This document shows, one piece after another, positions 37,712-48,391 of a DNA stretch of 64,000 bases. This DNA comes from Alphaproteobacteria bacterium. Its GTDB lineage: Bacteria > Pseudomonadota > Alphaproteobacteria > SMXP01. The position numbers and the translations under genes are program-made. Below the pieces are notes generated by a model, which saw nothing but the letters and a program-made list of their open reading frames with translations, ran no database searches and was not told where the DNA came from. Position 1 is the stretch's first letter. Each line of letters starts with the position of its first letter. The DNA lies in assembly GCA_028285305.1 (NCBI GenBank), contig JANQPV010000022.1, forward strand, positions 201,322-265,321, read 5' to 3'.

Positions 37712-37912
37712 GGCGAGGTTCCGTTTTTAGCTGCGTATTCGCGCCGGTAACCTGCACAAAATCGAGGTTTGGGTAAATAGGGCGGTGGGGCGCATGCGAA
37801 TGGGTATCAGGTACCCCCCAAGCGCATATTGACCCACGCCAATTCTGCTATACCAATGACCGATGAATTGGTTATGGTCGCGCAAACGTGCGAAAAACAA
37901 AGGGAAAACGCC

Positions 37913-38956
37913 ATGAAACTGGGATTATTGACGGGCTACTCAGGGGCCAAGGCTGGATTGCCGATCGATAAGGTCTTGGAAGCGGAAAGTCTCGGCTTCG
38001 ATTCCGTTTGGACGGCCGAAGCGTATGGGTCCGATGCCGTCAGTCCCGCCGCCTGGATCCTCGCCAAAACAACGAAAATCAAAGTTGGAACGGCGATCAT
38101 GCAGATGCCGGCGCGAACGCCAGCGATGACCGCGATGACGGCGATGACACTCAACGAACTCTCGGGTGGGCGGTTTCTTCTTGGTCTCGGTCCGTCGGGA
38201 CCTCAAGTGGTGGAGGGCTGGCATGGCGTTCCCTATGGCAAGCCCATGACACGCACAAAAGAGTATATCGCGATTATTCGTCAAATCCTTGAGCGCAAGG
38301 GCCCCCTGGAATTTCAGGGCGAGATGTACCAAATCCCTCTCACGGGAGAAGGGTCGACGGGGCTAGGTAAACCACTGAAGAGTATCTTGCACGGCGATCC
38401 TTCGATGAAGATCTACACGGCAAACATTACTCCGGCCGGCTTGCGAACAAGTGCCGAAGCTGCCGATGGCGTGTTTCCGATCTGGATGAATCCGGAGCGG
38501 TTCGATGTTTTGGAAGGCGATCTCAACGAGGGATTTGCAAAAACCGGCAATAGCAAGGATCTGTCCTCTTTCGATGTGGCGCCGTTCGTGACGGTGAACG
38601 AGAACGATGATCTGGAAGCGGCCCGAATGCCGGTCAAGCACATGATGGCGCTTTATATCGGCGGCATGGGTGCACGAAGCAAAAACTTTTATAACGATTA
38701 TGCTAAGCGTTTGGGGTTTGAAGAGGCCGCCGTGACAATTCAAGATCTATACTTGGACGGCAAAAAGGCTGAAGCCGCGAATGCCGTTCCCGATGAGCTT
38801 GTGGACGCATGTGCGCTGGTCGGTCCGGCGGATCGCATCAAAGACCGGCTGCAATTGTGGAAAGAAGCCGGTAAGAACAATCAGGTCGGATCTATGCTTC
38901 TCAGCGCAAATGCAGAAGTCAAAACTTTACGCATGATTGCCGAAACCGTTCTGTAG
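37913..38956 (+). CDS. Luciferase-like F420-dependent oxidoreductase, first gene of F420 operon
   Basis: 347 residues of the bacterial luciferase-like TIM-barrel family, in the subgroup using coenzyme F420: GFDSVWTAEAYGSDAVSPAAW, VGTAIMQMPARTPA, GLGPSGPQVVEGWHGVPY. AAGGGA precedes ATG 37913; the open frame upstream to 37829 has no ribosome binding site. It is 31 bases before the cofactor biosynthesis fusion and on the same strand, so enzyme and cofactor are probably made together. A close paralogue leaves the right edge of the window (63092). Confidence 0.88.
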   Translation: MKLGLLTGYSGAKAGLPIDKVLEAESLGFDSVWTAEAYGSDAVSPAAWILAKTTKIKVGTAIMQMPARTPAMTAMTAMTLNELSGGRFLLGLGPSGPQVVEGWHGVPYGKPMTRTKEYIAIIRQILERKGPLEFQGEMYQIPLTGEGSTGLGKPLKSILHGDPSMKIYTANITPAGLRTSAEAADGVFPIWMNPERFDVLEGDLNEGFAKTGNSKDLSSFDVAPFVTVNENDDLEAARMPVKHMMALYIGGMGARSKNFYNDYAKRLGFEEAAVTIQDLYLDGKKAEAANAVPDELVDACALVGPADRIKDRLQLWKEAGKNNQVGSMLLSANAEVKTLRMIAETVL

Positions 38957-38987: not shown

Positions 38988-41900
38988 ATGGCGACCCAAA
39001 AAGTGTTTGGACCAATCTGGTGCATTGTTCCCGTCAAATCGATGGCCCAGTCTAAGACGCGTTTGAAGCCGATGGCGCAGGAAAAGCGCGAACGTTTGGC
39101 AATGACGATGGCGCGAGACGTTATCAACGCTGCCGTTGAAGCCAATTCGTTGGACCATGTTCTCGTAGTCACATCCGACGCCGCTATTGAGCGGTATGCG
39201 GAGAGTGTGGGAGCGCAGGTCATTGAAGACCCCGGACAGGGCTTAAACGCGGCGATCGCGGAGGGACTTGCGTTTGCGAGTGAAGACGGGGCCGGCCTTG
39301 CTTGTATCGTTCATGCGGACTTGCCGCTTGTGTCGGCGCAAGAGCTAAGCCGCATTGTTGACGATTTCTGTGCTGCCGGAGAGACCGACGCTGTGGGGGC
39401 GCTGGTCTGCAAAGATAATGACGGTACGAATCTTCTCATTTTGGATCCTTCTGATCCGATCGAACTTCGGTTTGGGAAGAATAGTTATGCTCTTCATAAG
39501 AAAGAGACCCTCAAATGCGAGCGCAGATTTGTTGAATTGGAATCGGATTTCCTCAGCCTGGACATCGATACGCAAAAGGATATTGAGCAGGCGATTGCGG
39601 AATTGAAGGGTAAGACAGTTTCCGCAGATACCAAATCTGTTTTGACGTCTGTTTATGATACTACGTCCAAGTCTGCGTCAGCTGGGTTGCGACAAAGGAA
39701 ATTGGAACCAGATACTTCGTTTTCCCGCGATCTTGAAGACCTGTGTGCTCAGGCCTCAGACATCCGGGATGCGGGCTTCGGTGCGCTTGTCACATATTCT
39801 CCAAAGGTCTTTTTGCCGACCACCTATCTGTGCCGGGACACGTGTCATTATTGTGTGTTCGCCAAAACACCTCGGCAGGTAAATGGATCCCTCTATATGT
39901 CGGAAGAGGAGACTCTGCGCATTGCGCGGCGTGGGGCCGCTCTTGGATGTTCGGAAGCTCTTTTTACTCTCGGTGAAAAGCCGGAGTTGAGGTATTCCGC
40001 GGCGCGGAAGTGGCTCGATGAAAACGGCTACGAATCGACGCTTCACTATGTGGCTTATCTGGCGGAGCGTGTGCTGAGTGAAACGGGGCTCCTGCCTCAC
40101 ATCAATGCGGGCTGTATGACCGAAGATGAGGTCGCGATGTTGCGTCCAGTTTCGGCATCAATGGGGTTGATGCTCGAAAACGTCTCCCCGCGATTGTGTG
40201 AGAAAGGCGGGCCCCATTATGGATCCCCCGACAAAGATCCAGCTGTTCGTTTGCAGACGATCGAGAATGCGGGAAAGGCGAACGTTCCTTTCACCACCGG
40301 GATACTGATCGGGATCGGAGAGACGCGCGATGAGATATTGGACTCTCTCTACGCGATCCGTGATCTGCACAAGACGTACGGGCATATTCAAGAAATTATC
40401 ATCCAGAATTTTGTACCGAAGGACGCGACCAAGATGGCGGAGACCCCGGCCGCAGGTATCGACGACCTGCGCTGGACGATTGCCGCGGCGCGGCACATTT
40501 TCGGCCCCGAAATGAGTCTTCAGGCTCCGCCCAATCTGAACGAGGGCTATTTGGAGGCGCTCATCGGTGCGGGAATTAACGATTGGGGCGGCGTCTCTCC
40601 GCTTACGCCGGATCATGTCAATCCAGAGTCGCCGTGGCCTCATCTTGATGAATTGCGTTCGGCAACCAAAACAGCCGGCAAGCATTTACAGGAACGACTG
40701 ACGGTCTATCCCGCCTATGCCATGGACCAAGATATTTGGATTGACGAAAAGGTTCGGCCGTCCGTTCTCAAACTGATGGACGGAGCTGGGTATGGACGCG
40801 ACAGCCAGTGGCTTTCCGGTGTCACCGTGGATGTGCCTGAGCGCATGAAGCAAGATGTGCGGCGCGCTGTCTCACAAAGCAATGGGTCCCAAATCGGAGA
40901 GATCTTGCGGGAGATCGAGTTCTACGGAGCCGATGCCCTATCTGAGGATGAGATTTCATCTTTGTTTGATGCGCGCGGCGACGACTTTTCGCGGGTCTGC
41001 CGGGCTGCCGATGAGGCAAGACACGAGGCGATCGGTGACACGGTAACGTATGTGATCAACCGGAATATCAACTACACCAATATGTGTACGTACCACTGCA
41101 CATTCTGTGCGTTCTCAAAGGGCAGCCGCAAGGTCGAAGGTGCAGACAAGCCGTATTTAATCGATGTTGCTGAGATAGTGGGCCGCTCTCAAGAAGCATG
41201 GGACAAGGGCGGCACGGAAGTTTGCTTGCAGGGCGGTATTCATCCCAGCTTTACAGGAGAGACGTATCTCTCGATTGCCGAGGGTGTGCGCCGAGCGATT
41301 CCCGACATGCATATCCACGCATTTTCTCCACTTGAGGTTTGGCATGGCGCCACAAGTCTGGGCGTCTCTTTAGATGCGTTTCTGCGCATGCTTAAAGATG
41401 TGGGACTCAACACGCTTCCGGGTACGGCGGCTGAAATCCTCGATGACCGAGTGCGTGCCGAATTGTGTCCGGACAAACTGAATACGGATCAATGGCTCGA
41501 GGTGATTGAGACGGCTCATGAAGTGGGCTTGTCTACCACTTCAACGATCATGTTCGGTCATCTGGAGACGTATGAGAGCTGGGCGTTGCATTTGCTCCGT
41601 CTGCGTGAGTTACAAAAGCGCACAGGAGGCATTACAGAATTCGTGCCCCTGCCCTTTGTGGCGCATGAGGCGCCCGTGTACAAAAAAGGCAAAGCCCGGC
41701 GCGGTCCGACTCTGAGAGAGGGTATTTTGATGCATGCGGTCTCGCGGCTGGTGCTTGCTCCTTATATTGAGAATATTCAAACCTCATGGGTGAAAATGGG
41801 GATGCAAGGCGCTCAGCTTTGTCTGGACGCGGGTGCCAACGACATGGGCGGTACATTGATGAACGAAAGCATCACACGTGCGGCAGGGGCAAAGCACGGC

Positions 41901-42065
41901 CAAGAGATGACGGAAGACACTTTGAGGGCCGCAATATTGGAAATCGGCCGTACGCCAATGCAGAGATCCACACAATATGGATCAATGGCTGAGTCATCCC
42001 ATTGGCTTACTCCGTCGTACCTCCAGGCAGATGCGATTCAATACGGCTTTTCGCCGTCGGTCTAA
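38988..42065 (+). CDS. cofC-cofG-cofH: CofC-CofG-CofH triple fusion (F420 precursor and FO synthesis)
   Basis: 1025 residues joining three F420 enzymes. Residues 1-210 are a CofC/FbiD-type guanylyltransferase (IVPVKSMAQSKTRL, HADLPLV, SDPIELRFG) that activates the three-carbon acid. About 245-600 is the radical SAM CofG part with C282, C286, C289 (CRDTCHYC). About 660-1025 is CofH with C700, C704, C707 (CTYHCTFC), plus CLQGGIHP and TSTIMFGHLET. CofG and CofH make the deazaflavin FO from tyrosine and a flavin precursor. Actinobacteria fuse only CofG and CofH (FbiC); the added CofC is unusual. ATG 38988 was chosen over an upstream frame that overlaps the preceding gene. Confidence 0.93.
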   Translation: MATQKVFGPIWCIVPVKSMAQSKTRLKPMAQEKRERLAMTMARDVINAAVEANSLDHVLVVTSDAAIERYAESVGAQVIEDPGQGLNAAIAEGLAFASEDGAGLACIVHADLPLVSAQELSRIVDDFCAAGETDAVGALVCKDNDGTNLLILDPSDPIELRFGKNSYALHKKETLKCERRFVELESDFLSLDIDTQKDIEQAIAELKGKTVSADTKSVLTSVYDTTSKSASAGLRQRKLEPDTSFSRDLEDLCAQASDIRDAGFGALVTYSPKVFLPTTYLCRDTCHYCVFAKTPRQVNGSLYMSEEETLRIARRGAALGCSEALFTLGEKPELRYSAARKWLDENGYESTLHYVAYLAERVLSETGLLPHINAGCMTEDEVAMLRPVSASMGLMLENVSPRLCEKGGPHYGSPDKDPAVRLQTIENAGKANVPFTTGILIGIGETRDEILDSLYAIRDLHKTYGHIQEIIIQNFVPKDATKMAETPAAGIDDLRWTIAAARHIFGPEMSLQAPPNLNEGYLEALIGAGINDWGGVSPLTPDHVNPESPWPHLDELRSATKTAGKHLQERLTVYPAYAMDQDIWIDEKVRPSVLKLMDGAGYGRDSQWLSGVTVDVPERMKQDVRRAVSQSNGSQIGEILREIEFYGADALSEDEISSLFDARGDDFSRVCRAADEARHEAIGDTVTYVINRNINYTNMCTYHCTFCAFSKGSRKVEGADKPYLIDVAEIVGRSQEAWDKGGTEVCLQGGIHPSFTGETYLSIAEGVRRAIPDMHIHAFSPLEVWHGATSLGVSLDAFLRMLKDVGLNTLPGTAAEILDDRVRAELCPDKLNTDQWLEVIETAHEVGLSTTSTIMFGHLETYESWALHLLRLRELQKRTGGITEFVPLPFVAHEAPVYKKGKARRGPTLREGILMHAVSRLVLAPYIENIQTSWVKMGMQGAQLCLDAGANDMGGTLMNESITRAAGAKHGQEMTEDTLRAAILEIGRTPMQRSTQYGSMAESSHWLTPSYLQADAIQYGFSPSV

Positions 42066-42089: not shown

Positions 42090-42752
42090 ATGACTGGACA
42101 AAAGATTGCGGTCCTTGGGGGGACTGGCGACCTGGGATATGGACTTGCGAAACGCTGGGCGGACGCCGGATTCGACGTCATCGTAGGTTCGCGCAAAGCC
42201 GAGAAGGCCGAAACCATCGCCGCTGAGATTAATGCGGAAAAGCCCTCACGCGGCATCCGCGGCCTACAAAACTCAGACGCCGCCCGAGAAGCCGACGTGG
42301 TGGCCGTCACGGTTCCGTTTGAGCATCAGCAAGGCACGCTTGCGGACATCAAGAGCGAAGTGGCTGGAAAGATCGTTATCGATACGACCGTATGCCTGAA
42401 GCCGCCAAAGGTTGGTACCGTGCAACTGCCTCCCGAAGGAAGTGCGGGCATCATTGCGGAGGAAACCATAGGTGACGTTGCACGAGTTGTTTCCGCGTTT
42501 CAAAATGTACCGGCGACAGAGCTTCGCTCTGATGGTCCCATTACGTGTCATGTTCTTGTGACGGGGAATGACAAAGAAGCGCGCGCCGAAGTCGTCGAGC
42601 TCATTGGAGCGATGGGAGCGACAGGGATCAGTGCTGGCCCCATGGCGAACTCCATTGCCGTTGAAGGGCTCACGTCCGTTCTCATTACCATTAACCGACA
42701 GTTCAAAACCCATGCGGGCATACAGATTACCAATCTTGACGGGCATGCGTGA
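42090..42752 (+). CDS. fno: F420-dependent NADP oxidoreductase
   Basis: 220 residues. The Rossmann motif is IAVLGGTGDLGYGLAKRWADAG, with GSRKAEKAE giving the Ser-Arg-Lys that contacts the NADP phosphate. AVTVPFEHQ and the C-terminal TNLDG segment are as in Fno/NpdG proteins. It transfers hydride between NADPH and F420, so it can recharge the cofactor for the luciferase-like enzymes. It lies 24 bases after the fusion gene. Confidence 0.9.
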   Translation: MTGQKIAVLGGTGDLGYGLAKRWADAGFDVIVGSRKAEKAETIAAEINAEKPSRGIRGLQNSDAAREADVVAVTVPFEHQQGTLADIKSEVAGKIVIDTTVCLKPPKVGTVQLPPEGSAGIIAEETIGDVARVVSAFQNVPATELRSDGPITCHVLVTGNDKEARAEVVELIGAMGATGISAGPMANSIAVEGLTSVLITINRQFKTHAGIQITNLDGHA

Positions 42753-42798: not shown

Positions 42799-42895
42799 TC
42801 CTTCCCCGGCTTGACCGGGGATCCAGATGAACGGGATGTGGCGCTGACGAATGGATCCCCGCTCGGCGCAAACTGCGTTTGCTTGGCGGGGAAAT
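42799..42895. repeat. Palindromic element inside the F420 operon
   Basis: TTCCCCGGCTTGACCGGGGATCC opens it and TGGATCCCCGCTCGGCG, with CTTGGCGGGGAAA, closes it. It is of the GGGGATCC type also seen at 62953 and lies between fno and cofE, where it could form an RNA hairpin within the transcript. Confidence 0.6.
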
Positions 42896-42922
42896 GCTTC
42901 AAGTGACGCGGCTGTTGAAGGA

Positions 42923-43723
42923 ATGACAGAGCGATCAAAGTCTGCCGGCAAATCAAACTCTCTTGAGCTTATTGCCCTTGACGATGTTCCGGAAGTTCAG
43001 CCGGGGGATGACGTCACGCGAATCGTCATAGATGCGGTTGCGGCGACCAATGCTAAGCTTGAAGATGGCGACGTTGTCGTCATCGCGCAAAAGATCATCT
43101 CCAAGGCGGAAGGCCGTCAGGTGAGTCTGGCGGATGTTACACCCGGTGATGAAGCGCAACGCCTGGCAGACAAAACGGGCAAAGACCCTCGACTTGTTCA
43201 GTTGGTGCTGGATGAATCAAATCGGGTGTTGCGGCATCGGCCCAATGTTCTCGTCGTCGAACACCGGCTCGGATTTGTACATGCCAATGCGGGAATCGAT
43301 CAATCGAATATTGCTCACGGGGAAGGCCAAGACCGCGCGCTGCTACTTCCTCTGGATTCCGATGCAAGTGCAGCGAAAATTCGCTCACAGATTAAGGAGC
43401 TGATCGGTGTCGATGTCGGTGTTATTGTCAACGACAGTTTTGGACGCGCTTGGCGGTACGGCACGGTCGGACACACGATCGGGTCGGCTGGTGTTCGCGC
43501 GCTAGACGATTTGCGGGGTGAAAGCGATCGGTTTGGCGGCGAGCTGCAAATCACAGAAGTCGCAATTGCCGATGAGCTTGCTGCTGCGGCGTCCTATGTT
43601 ATGGGTCAAGCATCTGAAGGGTGCCCCGTTGTTCTAGTCCGCGGGGCGGCGAAGCATGTGGGCTCCGATCAGACCGTTCGGAATTTGCTGCGCGATCCCA
43701 AGGAGGATATGTTCCGCGACTAG
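42923..43723 (+). CDS. cofE: F420-0:gamma-glutamyl ligase
   Basis: 266 residues, about the size of archaeal CofE. It adds glutamate to F420-0 with GTP. Family features are VVIAQKIISKAEGR, DPRLVQLVLDES, GLxHANAGIDQSN-type text at HANAGIDQSN, and NDSFGRAWRYGTVGHTIGSAG. It lacks the C-terminal nitroreductase-like FMN domain of mycobacterial FbiB, which reduces dehydro-F420-0. ATG 42923 was chosen with GAAGG just before it; the frame runs on upstream into a repeat. It ends 19 bases before cofD. Confidence 0.9.
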   Translation: MTERSKSAGKSNSLELIALDDVPEVQPGDDVTRIVIDAVAATNAKLEDGDVVVIAQKIISKAEGRQVSLADVTPGDEAQRLADKTGKDPRLVQLVLDESNRVLRHRPNVLVVEHRLGFVHANAGIDQSNIAHGEGQDRALLLPLDSDASAAKIRSQIKELIGVDVGVIVNDSFGRAWRYGTVGHTIGSAGVRALDDLRGESDRFGGELQITEVAIADELAAAASYVMGQASEGCPVVLVRGAAKHVGSDQTVRNLLRDPKEDMFRD

Positions 43724-43742: not shown

Positions 43743-44702
43743 GTGGGACACATTATTGCCCTTAGCGGCGGTGTCGGTGGCGCAAAACTGGCCTTTGGAT
43801 TGTCCAAGGTTCTGCCGCCGGAAGACCTATCCGTCATCGTGAATACGGGCGATGATTTCGAACATTTCGGCTTACCGATTTCGCCGGATATTGACACCCT
43901 GCTTTACACCTTGTCGGAGCTCAACGATCCCGGAAAGGGTTGGGGGCGTGCAGACGAAACGTGGTCGTTCCTGGAAACCATGAAGGCGCTCGGCGGTGAG
44001 GCCTGGTTCATGCTGGGTGATCGGGATCTCGCTCTTCACGTCTTCCGAAAGACTTTGCTGAACGCCGGCATGACATTGACAGAAGCCGTAGCGGTCTTGT
44101 CGGAACGGTTGGGCGTTCGGCAGACCGTCTTGCCCATGTCGAACGACCCCGTACAGACGATGTTGGACACCGATCAGGGGTTGTTATCGTTTCAACACTA
44201 TTTCGTACGGGAGCGGACCAAACCCAAGGTCAAGAGTGTTTCGTTCTCCAGCTCAGATGCGGCCACGCTGTCAACAGAAGTCAGAGACGTGTTTGCGCGA
44301 GGCGACTTGGATGGAGTTGTCGTGTGTCCGTCAAATCCCTTCTTGAGTATTGACCCGCTGCTGGCCGTACCCGGCTTTCAGGCACTGCTCAAGGGGACGC
44401 TCGCGCCGGTTATTGCGGTCTCCCCAATTGTGGGTGGCCAAGCGATAAAGGGGCCGACAGCGAAGATGATGGAGGAACTGGGGTTGGAGCTTTCTGCAAT
44501 GACCGTCGCTGAGAAGTACAAGGAATTTTTGGACGGGTTTGTGCTGGACGAAGTGGATGCGGGCCTGGAGGAGGAAGTGGTATCGCTCGGCTTTCCAGTG
44601 GCAACTTTTCAGACGGTCATGAAAACCGAGGAAGACCGAACTCAACTGGCTCGGGCGTGTTTAGGGTTTTTGAAAGAGATATCTGCCTCACAGGCGCCTT
44701 GA
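43743..44702 (+). CDS. cofD: 2-phospho-L-lactate (or analogous) transferase
   Basis: 319 residues starting at GTG 43743 with GAGGGA upstream. ALSGGVGGAKLAFGL, VNTGDDFEHFGLPISPDIDTLLYTL and MLGDRDLALHVFRK mark the CofD/FbiA family. It joins the GDP-activated phospho-acid from CofC to FO to make F420-0 or its analogue. It is the last gene of the operon. Confidence 0.95.
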   Translation: MGHIIALSGGVGGAKLAFGLSKVLPPEDLSVIVNTGDDFEHFGLPISPDIDTLLYTLSELNDPGKGWGRADETWSFLETMKALGGEAWFMLGDRDLALHVFRKTLLNAGMTLTEAVAVLSERLGVRQTVLPMSNDPVQTMLDTDQGLLSFQHYFVRERTKPKVKSVSFSSSDAATLSTEVRDVFARGDLDGVVVCPSNPFLSIDPLLAVPGFQALLKGTLAPVIAVSPIVGGQAIKGPTAKMMEELGLELSAMTVAEKYKEFLDGFVLDEVDAGLEEEVVSLGFPVATFQTVMKTEEDRTQLARACLGFLKEISASQAP

Positions 44703-45348: not shown

Positions 45349-46353
45349 TTAGGCGGCGATGTTGAACTTGTCCGCGGTGAATGCATCAAATGTGCGTTGG
45401 GCATCTTCTGCGGTTGCGGCCATGGGGGCGATGATATGGGTGTGGATCCCAGTTTCCGCACACCATTGCAGCCGTTCTTGGCACTCTTCAGGCGACCCGA
45501 TAATGGCGATTTCGTCAACCACCTCATCAGAGAGGGCGCCGGTTGTTTTGGCCCGGTCTTTCTCAGCCCAGCCTTCGCGAATAACGGCGGCCACATCTTC
45601 AAAACCGGCCCAAGCGAGAAACTGATTATAGACCGGTGTTGCATAGTAAGGTGCAAACGCCGCCCGGAAGAGGTCGCGGGCTCCTTCTTTATTGTCCGTG
45701 ACCAGAACCATGTAGCGGTTGACGATTTCGATGTCTTGCCAGTTCTTGCCGGCGCGCTCTGCGCCGATCTTCACATGCTCCATCATCTTTGGCAGGGCTC
45801 GCTTCGGCCAAAGGTTGAAGACGACACCATCGCCGACTTCCGCGGCCATCTCGATCATCTTGGAGCGGAGAGCCGCCAAATAGACCGGAACGGGCTTCTC
45901 CAGCGGCGCCTGTCGGTAGCCGTGGCTCTTGACGGTGGAAAGATCGAAGTTTGACTTTTCCCCTGCGAGCATGGACTTTACCATGATCGCCGTTTCCTTG
46001 ACGCGGGTGAGCGGCTTGTCAAAGTCCTGGCCGTGCCAGCCCACCATCATGTTTTGGCTGGAGGATCCTAAGCCCATTACAAAACGATCGGGAAGAATTT
46101 GTCCCAACGCATTGGCGGTTGCGGCGAGAACCGCCGGCGTGCGGCTGTAGACCGGCGTGACGGCGACACCGAACCGCAGCGTCTTTGTGTGGTGGGCCAG
46201 AGCAGCTGTGGTCGTGAGGGCATCAGGTGCCCCCGAATCTCCCCACCACGCATCGGCGTAGCCGACATCCTCGGCCCACTTCACGCGCTCGATCGTGTCT
46301 GTCACACTGGGACCAGCAGGCAATGTCACTGCCATTCTTTGTTGTACCGTCAC
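45349..46353 (-). CDS. Luciferase-like F420-dependent oxidoreductase
   Basis: 334 residues starting at GTG 46353 with GAGGGAGAA upstream. Barrel features are GYADAWWGDSGAPDAL, LRFGVAVTPVYSRTPAV, GLGSSSQNMMVGWHG and PVYLAALRSKMIEMAAEVGDGVVFN, as in F420 methylene-H4MPT-reductase-like (Mer/LLM) enzymes. It stands 36 bases after another luciferase-like gene on the same strand and 39 before the split-barrel gene, so these three probably form one transcript convergent with the F420 operon. Confidence 0.88.
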   Translation of the reverse strand: MTVQQRMAVTLPAGPSVTDTIERVKWAEDVGYADAWWGDSGAPDALTTTAALAHHTKTLRFGVAVTPVYSRTPAVLAATANALGQILPDRFVMGLGSSSQNMMVGWHGQDFDKPLTRVKETAIMVKSMLAGEKSNFDLSTVKSHGYRQAPLEKPVPVYLAALRSKMIEMAAEVGDGVVFNLWPKRALPKMMEHVKIGAERAGKNWQDIEIVNRYMVLVTDNKEGARDLFRAAFAPYYATPVYNQFLAWAGFEDVAAVIREGWAEKDRAKTTGALSDEVVDEIAIIGSPEECQERLQWCAETGIHTHIIAPMAATAEDAQRTFDAFTADKFNIAA

Positions 46354-46389: not shown

Positions 46390-47295
46390 CTATGCGAATG
46401 CGGCGAAGAGTTCTTCGATGGCCACCATCTGACCGCCGTTGGCAGACGAGGGGACCAATATGGGTGTGCTGATGCCTGCATCGAACCAGGCCTCGACACC
46501 TTCGCGGACCTTGGACACCGGGCCATAGAGCGTGTTGTCCGATAGCCATTTATCACTCATCAGTGAGGGGATCTTATCGAACTCCTTGCCTTCGATTGCC
46601 TTTTCGATGGCGTCCATTTCTTCGACGTAGCCGGCGGCGCGCCAGTAATTGCGATAGTTGGGCAACGATACGTAGCCCGTCAATGTTTTGCGATTGACAG
46701 CTGCGGCGGCTTTTTCATCGTCGCTAATGACTGTTGGGATCATGTCGCCCACAAAGAAGCCGGCATCTCGTTTGGCTTGGGAAATCGCGCCCAATTGCTC
46801 CGGCATATAGGATCTGGAGCCGTTTGCCCACACAGCGCCGTCACTGATTTCCAAAGCCAGGTCCAACATCTTGCTACGAAGGGTTGCCAGCGTAATGGGC
46901 GGGAGCGGACCGGTTTCTTTTTCGGCCGCGCGCATGTCTTCTACATATTGGCGGGTGTCGGACAGAGGTTTGCCGACACTCAGTTTATAGCGGTTGTAGA
47001 CAGGGCCGTGGCTGACGCCGATGCCGAGATGAAAACGCCCATTTGAAACTTCCTGAATGAAGGCGGATGTGCGGGCCAGCTCAACGGGATGACGATAATA
47101 GATCGGTTGGATGGCGGTGCCGAAGTGGATTTCGTTCGTAACATGGGCTATCGACTGGCACAGGGCCATGCAGTCGCCGAGGCTGGGACAGTAAATGCCG
47201 GCAAAGCCTCTTTTCTCCATTTCGGTTGCAATGTCGATGGTTCTTGAGCGGCGCGTGGGAACGGCGGCCAAGGAGACGGCGGGCATGCGGGTCAT
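46390..47295 (-). CDS. Luciferase-like F420-dependent oxidoreductase
   Basis: 301 residues. GFAGIYCPSLGDCMALCQSIAH, FGTAIQPIYYRHPVELARTSA and FHLGIGVSHGPVYNRY are the family segments. ATG 47295, with AAAGGA six bases upstream, is preferred over TTG 47301. It is the first gene of the minus-strand group and divergent from a fourth luciferase-like gene. Substrate unknown. Confidence 0.88.
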   Translation of the reverse strand: MTRMPAVSLAAVPTRRSRTIDIATEMEKRGFAGIYCPSLGDCMALCQSIAHVTNEIHFGTAIQPIYYRHPVELARTSAFIQEVSNGRFHLGIGVSHGPVYNRYKLSVGKPLSDTRQYVEDMRAAEKETGPLPPITLATLRSKMLDLALEISDGAVWANGSRSYMPEQLGAISQAKRDAGFFVGDMIPTVISDDEKAAAAVNRKTLTGYVSLPNYRNYWRAAGYVEEMDAIEKAIEGKEFDKIPSLMSDKWLSDNTLYGPVSKVREGVEAWFDAGISTPILVPSSANGGQMVAIEELFAAFA

Positions 47296-47452
47296 AGTCA
47301 ATCCTTTGTTTTATTCCGGACTACCCTAATGCCTCGCCCGCGCGCTGCAAGTCTTCTTGTTTTGCGGGGATGCTGCTATGCCGTTTCGCTGTTGATCGAG
47401 CGGAGAATTCCTCGATACAGTCCGAGATTGCAGATTAACAATAGAGGCCGAT

Positions 47453-48391
47453 ATGAGCATTCGAATTGGGATCGGGGCGCTGGCCCATGTATTTGAGGAC
47501 TCAGACGGCTTCTGGCGCTGGGTAGATGTCCTGGAGGAAAGCGGTGTCGATTCTCTTTGGCAGTCAGACCGGCTCATCTCAAAGGAAGTCCAGCTTGAAA
47601 CCATGAGCGTGATGGCGGCGCTGGCCGGACGAACGCAGCGTCTCAAATTCGGGATGAACGCGGTCGTGCTTCCTTACCGGGATCCGCTCGTCTTGGCGAA
47701 ACAATGCGCCACCATTGACTATTTGAGTAAGGGCCGCTTGCTGCCGGTATTTGGCGTTGGAGCGCCATTTAATCCGGAATGGAAAGCCACAGGACGCGTG
47801 ACGAAAGCGCGAGGAAAAAAATCCAATGAAGCTCTTGAGATCATGAAACGGCTTTGGACAGGGGACAAAATCTCGTTCGACGGAGAGTTTTATTCGTATA
47901 CGGATGCGCAGATTTCACCGAAGCCGGTGCAAAAGAACTTCCCGGTTTGGATTGGTGGCAACAGTCCGGCGGCAATTGACCGAACGGCGCAAATGGGTAC
48001 GGGATGGCTGGGCGGTATCGTGACGCCGGAAAAGTGTGGTGTGGTCATTTCATCCATTAAGGATAAAGCTAGAGAATGCGGGCGTAAGATTGATGACGAC
48101 CATTACGGTGTGACGCTCGGTTATCGTTTCGGCTCTTACGACGATAAGCCAGTACAAACGTTCATTGATCGGATTAATTCAAGGCGGCCGGATGGTTTTG
48201 ATCCCAAGACCTGCCTTGCTGTCGGGACACCGGCCGAAGTTGCGGATGCCTTCAAGAGTTTTGTGGCGGCAGGGTCTTGCAAGTTCGTTGCTGTTCCGCT
48301 GGCGGAGAATGAGCAAGATATTCTCTACCAAACCGAATCTCTTGCCGGTGAGACCCTGCCTGAGGTCGAAGACCGACCAACGCGTCACTGA
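47453..48391 (+). CDS. Luciferase-like F420-dependent oxidoreductase
   Basis: 312 residues: GVDSLWQSDRLISKEVQLE, LKFGMNAVVLPYRDPLVLAKQCATIDYLSKGRLLPVFGVG, then SPKPVQKNFPVWIGGNSPAAIDR. This is the subgroup close to F420-dependent glucose-6-phosphate dehydrogenase-like and mycobacterial LLM proteins. It is directly followed by a small membrane protein gene starting two bases after its stop. Confidence 0.87.
   Translation: MSIRIGIGALAHVFEDSDGFWRWVDVLEESGVDSLWQSDRLISKEVQLETMSVMAALAGRTQRLKFGMNAVVLPYRDPLVLAKQCATIDYLSKGRLLPVFGVGAPFNPEWKATGRVTKARGKKSNEALEIMKRLWTGDKISFDGEFYSYTDAQISPKPVQKNFPVWIGGNSPAAIDRTAQMGTGWLGGIVTPEKCGVVISSIKDKARECGRKIDDDHYGVTLGYRFGSYDDKPVQTFIDRINSRRPDGFDPKTCLAVGTPAEVADAFKSFVAAGSCKFVAVPLAENEQDILYQTESLAGETLPEVEDRPTRH

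What the first reader, a model, noticed from the sequence alone, without database searches (positions are those of the whole stretch)
38988..42065. CofC fused to CofG and CofH in one 1025-residue protein
The frame runs without interruption from a guanylyltransferase (residues 1-210) through two radical SAM modules with CxxxCxxC at 282-289 and 700-707. FbiC (CofG-CofH) is established in actinobacteria; adding CofC puts precursor activation and deazaflavin synthesis on one chain. I do not recall a description of this triple fusion.
Basis: partly seen in the sequence, partly recalled or inferred. Interest (0 to 1): 0.85.

Follow-up and report, generated by a model that had tools for sequence, protein, structure and literature searches.

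The report
Three-in-one coenzyme F420 biosynthesis protein
A bacterium carries one long protein that joins three enzymes of the pathway to the redox coenzyme F420, a combination also found in scattered related bacteria and that I did not find described in the open papers searched; the enzymes themselves are ordinary.

Summary
One open frame at 38988-42065 (+), 1025 residues, carries CofC (match 13-207), CofG (269-593) and CofH (652-999), all above curated cut-offs, with CxxxCxxC at 282-289 and 700-707. CofC catalytic residues are kept; the model shows confident domains with a floppy linker at 228-238. A frame error is very unlikely: 12 other loci hold the full fusion without a stop, and one more as far as its contig runs, in alpha- and gammaproteobacterial records including the isolate Seongchinamella unica. 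It sits in an F420 operon (LLM - cofCGH - npdG - cofE - cofD) and is the only CofC above cut-off in its genome. Of 102 unfused CofGH loci, 74 have a separate cofC just upstream, 23 overlapping by 4 bases. Trees need 6-7 fused/unfused changes and reject one clade of all fusions. Gly163 predicts 2-phospholactate or phosphoenolpyruvate, not 3-phosphoglycerate. No description turned up in the open papers searched. Verdict: a real, recurrent domain architecture of known enzymes, modest in interest; any benefit of the tether is untested.

The parts
38988..42065 (+). fused CofC-CofG-CofH gene, 1025 aa
39015..39608 (+). CofC/FbiD guanylyltransferase domain (residues 10-207); K17, K23, D111, T147, G163, S166, D192, D194 present
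39669..39701 (+). flexible linker (residues 228-238, pLDDT under 50)
39792..40766 (+). CofG radical SAM domain (residues 269-593)
39831..39854 (+). CxxxCxxC of CofG (residues 282-289)
40941..41984 (+). CofH radical SAM domain (residues 652-999)
41085..41108 (+). CxxxCxxC of CofH (residues 700-707)
37829..38956 (+). LLM-class F420-dependent oxidoreductase (TIGR03559), 31 bases upstream of the fused gene's ATG; the family match begins at residue 30, so the true start may be later
42090..42752 (+). npdG/fno, NADPH-dependent F420 reductase (TIGR01915), 24 bases downstream
42851..43723 (+). cofE, F420-0:L-glutamate ligase, without the FbiB C-terminal reductase domain; the family match begins at residue 39, so the true start may be later
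43743..44702 (+). cofD, 2-phospho-L-lactate transferase

Best explanation
A trifunctional F420 biosynthesis enzyme. The N-terminal CofC domain guanylylates a C3 phospho-acid (2-phospholactate or phosphoenolpyruvate) with GTP. The C-terminal CofH and CofG domains make the deazaflavin FO from tyrosine and 5-amino-6-ribitylaminouracil by radical SAM chemistry. CofD, three genes further down the same operon, then joins the two products, and CofE adds glutamates. Shown here: one continuous frame, family membership of all three domains, kept active-site residues, fold agreement with CofC and MqnE structures, operon setting, and being the only CofC above cut-off in the genome. Inferred: that all three activities work, that the protein is not processed, and that the domains act largely independently on a flexible tether. 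The fusion most likely arose from neighbouring genes by loss of a stop or a small frame change, more than once in different lineages.
For: Family matches above curated cut-offs. Catalytic residues, including the two radical SAM motifs. AlphaFold2 mean pLDDT 90.6 with residues 228-238 under 50. Foldseek matches 6bwh (FbiD, TM by target 0.86), 7p97 (CofC, 0.88-0.91) and 6xig (MqnE, 0.84). One CofC above cut-off in the genome; four weak matches at 18-28 bits. Operon with npdG, cofE and cofD. Full architecture in 12 other loci, plus L016 as far as its contig runs. Of 114 distinct loci with joined CofGH, 12 are fused (the window's included), 74 have a separate cofC directly upstream (23 with a 4-base overlap, 22 in the same frame), 3 have it far off or in another order, and 25 show none in the stretch held. 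Changes on the tree: at least 7 in 114 rows, 6 in 41 rows; all fusions as one clade rejected, p-AU 0.0008.
Against: No experiment. In-frame TTG codons at residues 206, 219, 234 and 239, the last behind AAAGGAAA, leave a weak chance of internal initiation giving a separate CofGH. The linker has different codon-position GC from the domains, as a weakly constrained tether would. Inside the window's own clade L056 has two genes in different frames, and in the window's family G003 and G004 have an unfused cofC. Some branches that separate fused groups are weakly supported, and counts of changes cannot tell gain from loss. No dedicated dehydro-F420 reductase was found, so the last step of the PEP route is open.
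Confidence: 0.88

Rival explanations
1. Assembly or read error joining two adjacent genes, cofC and cofGH.
For: In many relatives the two genes are adjacent, in 22 of 74 adjacent pairs they share a frame, and several have a single stop between, so one wrong base could fuse them in an assembly. Of the 7 fused named records, 6 are titled as MAGs.
Against: The window contig is 416 kb. The same architecture occurs in relatives from separate assemblies at about 55% identity and in the cultured isolate Seongchinamella unica (L055). The six-row clade that holds the window's protein, five of its rows fused, has 100/100 support.
Confidence: 0.03
2. Fused on DNA but made as two proteins: internal initiation or proteolysis in the disordered linker releases CofC and CofGH.
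For: The linker is predicted disordered at 228-238, and a TTG at residue 239 follows AAAGGAAA.
Against: No ATG or GTG codon in residues 201-262; the spacing before that TTG is very short. The open frame is kept in distant members with quite different linkers.
Confidence: 0.07
3. The CofC domain of the fusion is a 3-phosphoglycerate enzyme, so the organism makes 3PG-F420.
For: The known 3PG-F420 makers are Gram-negative Mycetohabitans (PMC8764529, abstract and section 5), and no FbiB-type reductase above cut-off is present.
Against: The diagnostic residue is Gly163, as in 2-PL/PEP enzymes, not Ser/Thr (PMC8764529 section 10; alignment to 7p97). All 13 fused sequences aligned in A3, the window's included, have Gly there; L170 was not in that alignment.
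Confidence: 0.06
4. The tether is a channelling device: CofC holds its labile guanylylated product until FO, made on the same chain, is at hand, and both pass to CofD docked on the fusion.
For: The product GPPG stays tightly bound to CofC, and channelling to CofD was suggested (PMC8764529 section 17). CofD is in the same operon. The fusion occurs in several separate places of the tree.
Against: For FbiC itself the two domains are reported to exchange product by diffusion (PMC8498797 passage). The linkers differ in length and sequence. CofD is not part of the fusion. No test here shows contact between domains.
Confidence: 0.2

Closest known systems
FbiC / CofGH, bifunctional FO synthase (NCBIfam NF006687)
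   Same: CofG and CofH in one chain in the same order, both radical SAM motifs, joint model above cut-off
   Different: carries an additional N-terminal CofC domain
CofC / FbiD, 2-phospholactate or PEP guanylyltransferase (TIGR03552; PDB 6bwh, 7p97)
   Same: fold (TM by target 0.84-0.91 for the 6bwg, 6bwh and 7p97 chains listed) and catalytic residues
   Different: the solved ones matched are chains of 228-243 residues; here the domain is joined to FO synthase. Gly rather than the Ser of 3-PG enzymes at the diagnostic position
Proteobacterial npdG-cofE-cofD-cofC-cofGH operon (Paraburkholderia sp. PGU19 plasmid; Sinorhizobium meliloti pSymA)
   Same: same gene set in one direction, cofC directly upstream of cofGH (Paraburkholderia shows all five; the S. 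meliloti stretch fetched shows cofD-cofC-cofGH)
   Different: cofC and cofGH are separate there, overlapping by 4 bases; in the window they are one gene, and npdG, cofE and cofD lie downstream
FbiB (CofE plus dehydro-F420 reductase)
   Same: another gene fusion in F420 biosynthesis (PMC8498797 passage)
   Different: different partners; the window's cofE has no such C-terminal domain

Membership tests
FbiC / CofGH FO synthase | CofG and CofH homology in one chain over curated cut-offs | tested here: met
   NF006687 1103.5 bits (cut-off 1018); TIGR03550 505.1; TIGR03551 541.4
FbiC / CofGH FO synthase | two radical SAM CxxxCxxC motifs | tested here: met
   Cys 282/286/289 and 700/704/707
FbiC / CofGH FO synthase | FO synthase activity | not testable with these tools
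   needs anaerobic assay or heterologous production
CofC / FbiD guanylyltransferase | family model over cut-off | tested here: met
   TIGR03552 142.5 bits, cut-off 105; Pfam PF01983 90.2, cut-off 22. The model rings below cut-off widely: 13 of 14 control genomes, 3 over the cut-off
CofC / FbiD guanylyltransferase | Mg-binding aspartates and C3-acid pocket residues (Mtb K17, L92, D116, T148, G163, S166, D188, D190) | tested here: met
   K17, D111, T147, G163, S166, D192, D194 present, also K23, the place of the lysine that acts in the 3-PG enzyme (section 9; the pairing is mine). K23, D111, S166, D192, D194 are the same in all 13 fused and 50 separate CofC rows; K17 is Arg in 2 of 13 fused; T147 is Ser in 1 fused and 17 separate. 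Residue roles from PMC8764529 passages. Pairing; its FbiD alignment ends at residue 173, so D192/D194 rest on the 7p97 alignment. L86 is taken as the L92 place by alignment only
CofC / FbiD guanylyltransferase | FbiD/CofC fold | tested here: met
   Foldseek 6bwh_A TM by target 0.86, 7p97 0.88-0.91
3-PG-activating CofC | Ser or Thr at the diagnostic position (Mrhiz S162) | tested here: not met
   Gly163; rule from PMC8764529 section 10
complete PEP route with dehydro-F420 reductase | FbiB C-terminal type reductase in the genome | tested here: inconclusive
   16 matches at E up to 10, none over cut-off; 12 of 14 control genomes also ring, none over cut-off. The best one scores higher to BluB, also under that cut-off. 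A different reductase cannot be excluded

The most novel reading that the evidence does not exclude
The recurrent CofC-FO-synthase fusion marks a physical F420 assembly hub: the labile guanylylated C3 acid stays on CofC until FO made on the same chain is available, and both are handed to CofD bound to the fusion, so that selection repeatedly fuses the two neighbouring genes.
Probability: 0.2. Interest if true: 0.6.

Novelty: new variant of a known kind. Interest (0 to 1): 0.36.

Why it matters
It is a domain architecture in F420 biosynthesis, not found described in the papers searched, that joins the sources of both CofD substrates and seems to have arisen more than once. It gives a ready single-gene test of whether CofC, FO synthase and CofD work as an assembly, and a possible compact part for making F420 in E. 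coli or yeast. It may also matter for annotation: in two plasmid records the joined CofGH is named only CofH, and a like name on the fusion would hide its CofC and make the pathway look incomplete. The chemistry itself is known.

Tried and rejected
Frame error: set aside because of recurrence in other genomes. 3-PG specificity: set aside because of Gly163. A second, unfused CofC in the genome: none above cut-off (four weak matches at 18-28 bits).

Viral carriage: a scan of viral contigs gave 13 pattern matches, none a relative. A phylum-wide draw of 398 genomes found the window gene, one other joined CofG-CofH (G070) and no other triple fusion, so it was hardly informative. A dedicated FbiE was sought and not found.

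The 'open frame' column of the genome search was misleading: it can read through stops, so G015 and G119 looked fused and are not; conversely G744, shown in two rows, is fused. I therefore judged fusion from the sequences of fetched loci. Of the 55 same-class genomes with a CofG-CofH match of 800 bits or more (my count from the listing), 36 were fetched; of the other 19, 17 show a CofC row with another open-frame length or on another contig, and 2 (G140, G315) show none.

Loci from the genome search have 1,500-base flanks, so a cofC farther off would be missed.

Rows dropped: L061 and L110 as duplicates of L032 and L039. L016, cut by its contig end, was not in the trees. L170 was found later and added only to the 41-row tree, which I chose by hand from 115 rows; it is not in A3. 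Nine loci that duplicate others or are partial were skipped, and L017, a separate CofG gene that had slipped in there through a cross-match, is taken out of the counts given here. Two partial CofG/CofH loci (L017, L024) and part of the CofC and CofGH lists were left out of A3.

Full report
The observation. The frame at 38988-42065 on the + strand is open for 1025 residues. It matches CofC (TIGR03552, residues 13-207), CofG (TIGR03550, 269-593), CofH (TIGR03551, 652-999) and the joint CofGH model NF006687, all above curated cut-offs, and Pfam CofC at 12-210. The frame extends upstream to a TTG at 38937, but this would overlap the preceding gene, which ends at 38956; I take the ATG at 38988.

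Setting. The gene lies in a one-direction cluster: an LLM-class F420-dependent oxidoreductase (37829-38956), the fused gene, npdG/fno (42090-42752), cofE (42851-43723) and cofD (43743-44702), with gaps of 31, 24 and 19 bases at three of the four joints (by coordinates; families). Three further luciferase-like genes and a PNPOx-like gene follow within 4 kb. The window's contig is 416 kb of a 5.4 Mb, 77-contig assembly given as 95% complete. The genome has 48 luciferase-family matches over the Pfam cut-off; that family is not F420-specific, as 10 of 14 control genomes also have it over the cut-off in the same call. It has one CofC over cut-off, the fused one. The class is most likely Alphaproteobacteria: two genomes marked as the same class share CofGH sequences with records titled Alphaproteobacteria (L032 = L061, L039 = L110).

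Recurrence. In the same family, G002 has the full fusion and G001 has it as far as its contig runs; G003 and G004 have an unfused cofC after cofE and cofD, with no CofGH found. In 385 same-class genomes, 55 have a CofG-CofH match of 800 bits or more (my count from that listing). Of these, 5 carry the uninterrupted fusion (G000, G002, G203, G222, G310), with G001 besides; G126 and G232 have one in-frame stop between the genes. The loci of 36 of the 55 were read; the other 19 are called unfused or unknown from the table alone. In the family of G310, 3 of 4 genomes are fused (G310, G222, G744) and G119 is not. Among 80 named loci kept of 581 relatives, 7 are fused: L052, L053, L055, L073, L078, L104 and L108, titled as Gammaproteobacteria, Xanthomonadales, Seongchinamella unica GH4-78, Hyphomicrobiales, Rhodobacteraceae, Hyphomicrobiales and Caulobacteraceae. 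With L002, L033, L035, L036 and L170 this makes 12 loci with the full fusion besides the window's, and L016 as a thirteenth cut short. A draw of 398 genomes of the phylum gave no further case. G203 may carry foreign or misbinned DNA: its three congeners have no match.

Origin. Of 114 distinct loci with joined CofG-CofH, 12 are fused (the window's included), 74 have a separate cofC just upstream, 3 have it far off or in another order, and 25 show none in the stretch held. Of the 74, 23 overlap by 4 bases and 22 share the frame. In Sinorhizobium meliloti pSymA and a Paraburkholderia plasmid the annotated genes cofC and cofGH (named cofH there) overlap by 4 bases. A quick tree of 114 CofGH sequences needs at least 7 changes between fused and unfused. 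A careful tree of 41 chosen sequences needs 6, of which well-supported branches force 4; holding all 13 fused rows as one clade is rejected (log-likelihood 389.5 lower, p-AU 0.0008). The window's protein falls in a six-row 100/100 clade with the fused L170, L002, L052 and L053 and one split pair, L056, with overlapping frames. Counts of changes cannot separate gain from loss, the rows were chosen after seeing the data, and the places of L078, L108, L073, L104, L035 and L036 differ between the trees. Several separate fusions from a neighbouring gene pair is the plain reading.

Structure and active sites. AlphaFold2 with 98 aligned window and locus proteins gave mean pLDDT 90.6 and pTM 0.80; residues 228-238 and 1002-1025 are under 50. 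Foldseek finds MqnE (6xig), FbiD with PEP (6bwh) and the 3-PG CofC (7p97). The CofC residues K23, D111, S166, D192 and D194 are the same in all 13 fused and 50 separate CofC rows of A3; K17, which pairs with Mtb K17, is Lys in 11 of 13 fused and all 50 separate rows. The position that marks 3-PG enzymes (Ser or Thr; PMC8764529 section 10) is Gly in all 13 fused rows, and pairs with the Ser of 7p97 in the alignment. So 2-PL or PEP is expected; that paper notes that such assays cannot tell which of the two is used in vivo (section 5). No FbiB-type reductase reached cut-off; the best candidate scores higher to BluB.

One protein or two. Residues 201-262 contain no ATG or GTG codon; four in-frame TTG codons exist, one behind a purine-rich stretch with very short spacing. 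The linkers of the 13 fused rows differ in length (20-60 residues between the same two alignment points) and sequence, which fits a loose tether rather than a built interface.

Mechanism. CofC and FO synthase make the two substrates of CofD, so the fusion joins both inputs of one later step rather than two consecutive steps. The product of a 3-PG CofC stays tightly bound to the enzyme, and channelling to CofD has been suggested (PMC8764529 section 17); for FbiC, exchange between its two domains by diffusion is reported (PMC8498797 passage). I therefore hold independent domains on a tether as most likely, and an assembly hub with CofD as a minority reading.

Known or not. PMC8498797 (passages: 12 of 23 places, 12 of 12) describes the CofG-CofH and CofE-reductase fusions; none of the passages shown mentions CofC joined to them. 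Nor do the passages read of PMC6450877, or the abstract, passages and sections 5, 9, 10, 11 and 17 of PMC8764529. Seven full-text searches listed no paper on such a fusion by title or abstract start; four of them showed only the top of a longer list (25 of 55, 25 of 399, 15 of 32, 20 of 27), and the other papers were seen only in those listings. The library lacks most subscription papers, one likely source was not held, and domain databases could not be queried, so a catalogue entry for this architecture may well exist.

Noticed in passing
L058, L062, L063, L068, L076, L080, L088, L090 (CofC genes): Eight of 50 separate CofC rows have Asp (6) or Asn (2) where known enzymes have Gly (2-PL/PEP) or Ser/Thr (3-PG): F/Y-[DN]-GxS instead of FGxxS. 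The records are titled Pseudomonadales, Pseudomonadaceae or K189A clade, one only Proteobacteria. Possibly another C3-acid specificity.
   Followed up: partly
window 37829-38956, 45349-46353, 46390-47301, 47453-48391: Four luciferase-like genes lie around the F420 operon, and 48 PF00296 matches over cut-off occur in the whole genome: a rich set of F420- or flavin-dependent oxidoreductases; the family also occurs in 10 of 14 control genomes.
   Followed up: partly
L159 1477-2097 (own genome, contig C75): A nitroreductase-type gene, best match to BluB and weaker to the FbiB C-terminal domain, both under cut-off, lies beside a luciferase-like gene: a weak candidate for a dehydro-F420 reductase.
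   Followed up: partly
L059, L071: Metagenome records titled Klebsiella pneumoniae carry CofGH genes that group with gammaproteobacterial metagenome records in the tree: probably mislabelled bins.
   Followed up: no
L031, L032, L049, L054 and others: Several cofC-cofGH pairs share one frame with a single stop codon between the two open frames: one base from a fusion, and a place to look for read-through.
   Followed up: no
L018, L019: Two genomes of the window's family carry cofE-cofD-cofC without any CofGH found, at 84 and 92% completeness.
   Followed up: partly
G203 (L033): Its three congeners lack any match, so the fused locus may be transferred or misbinned.
   Followed up: no
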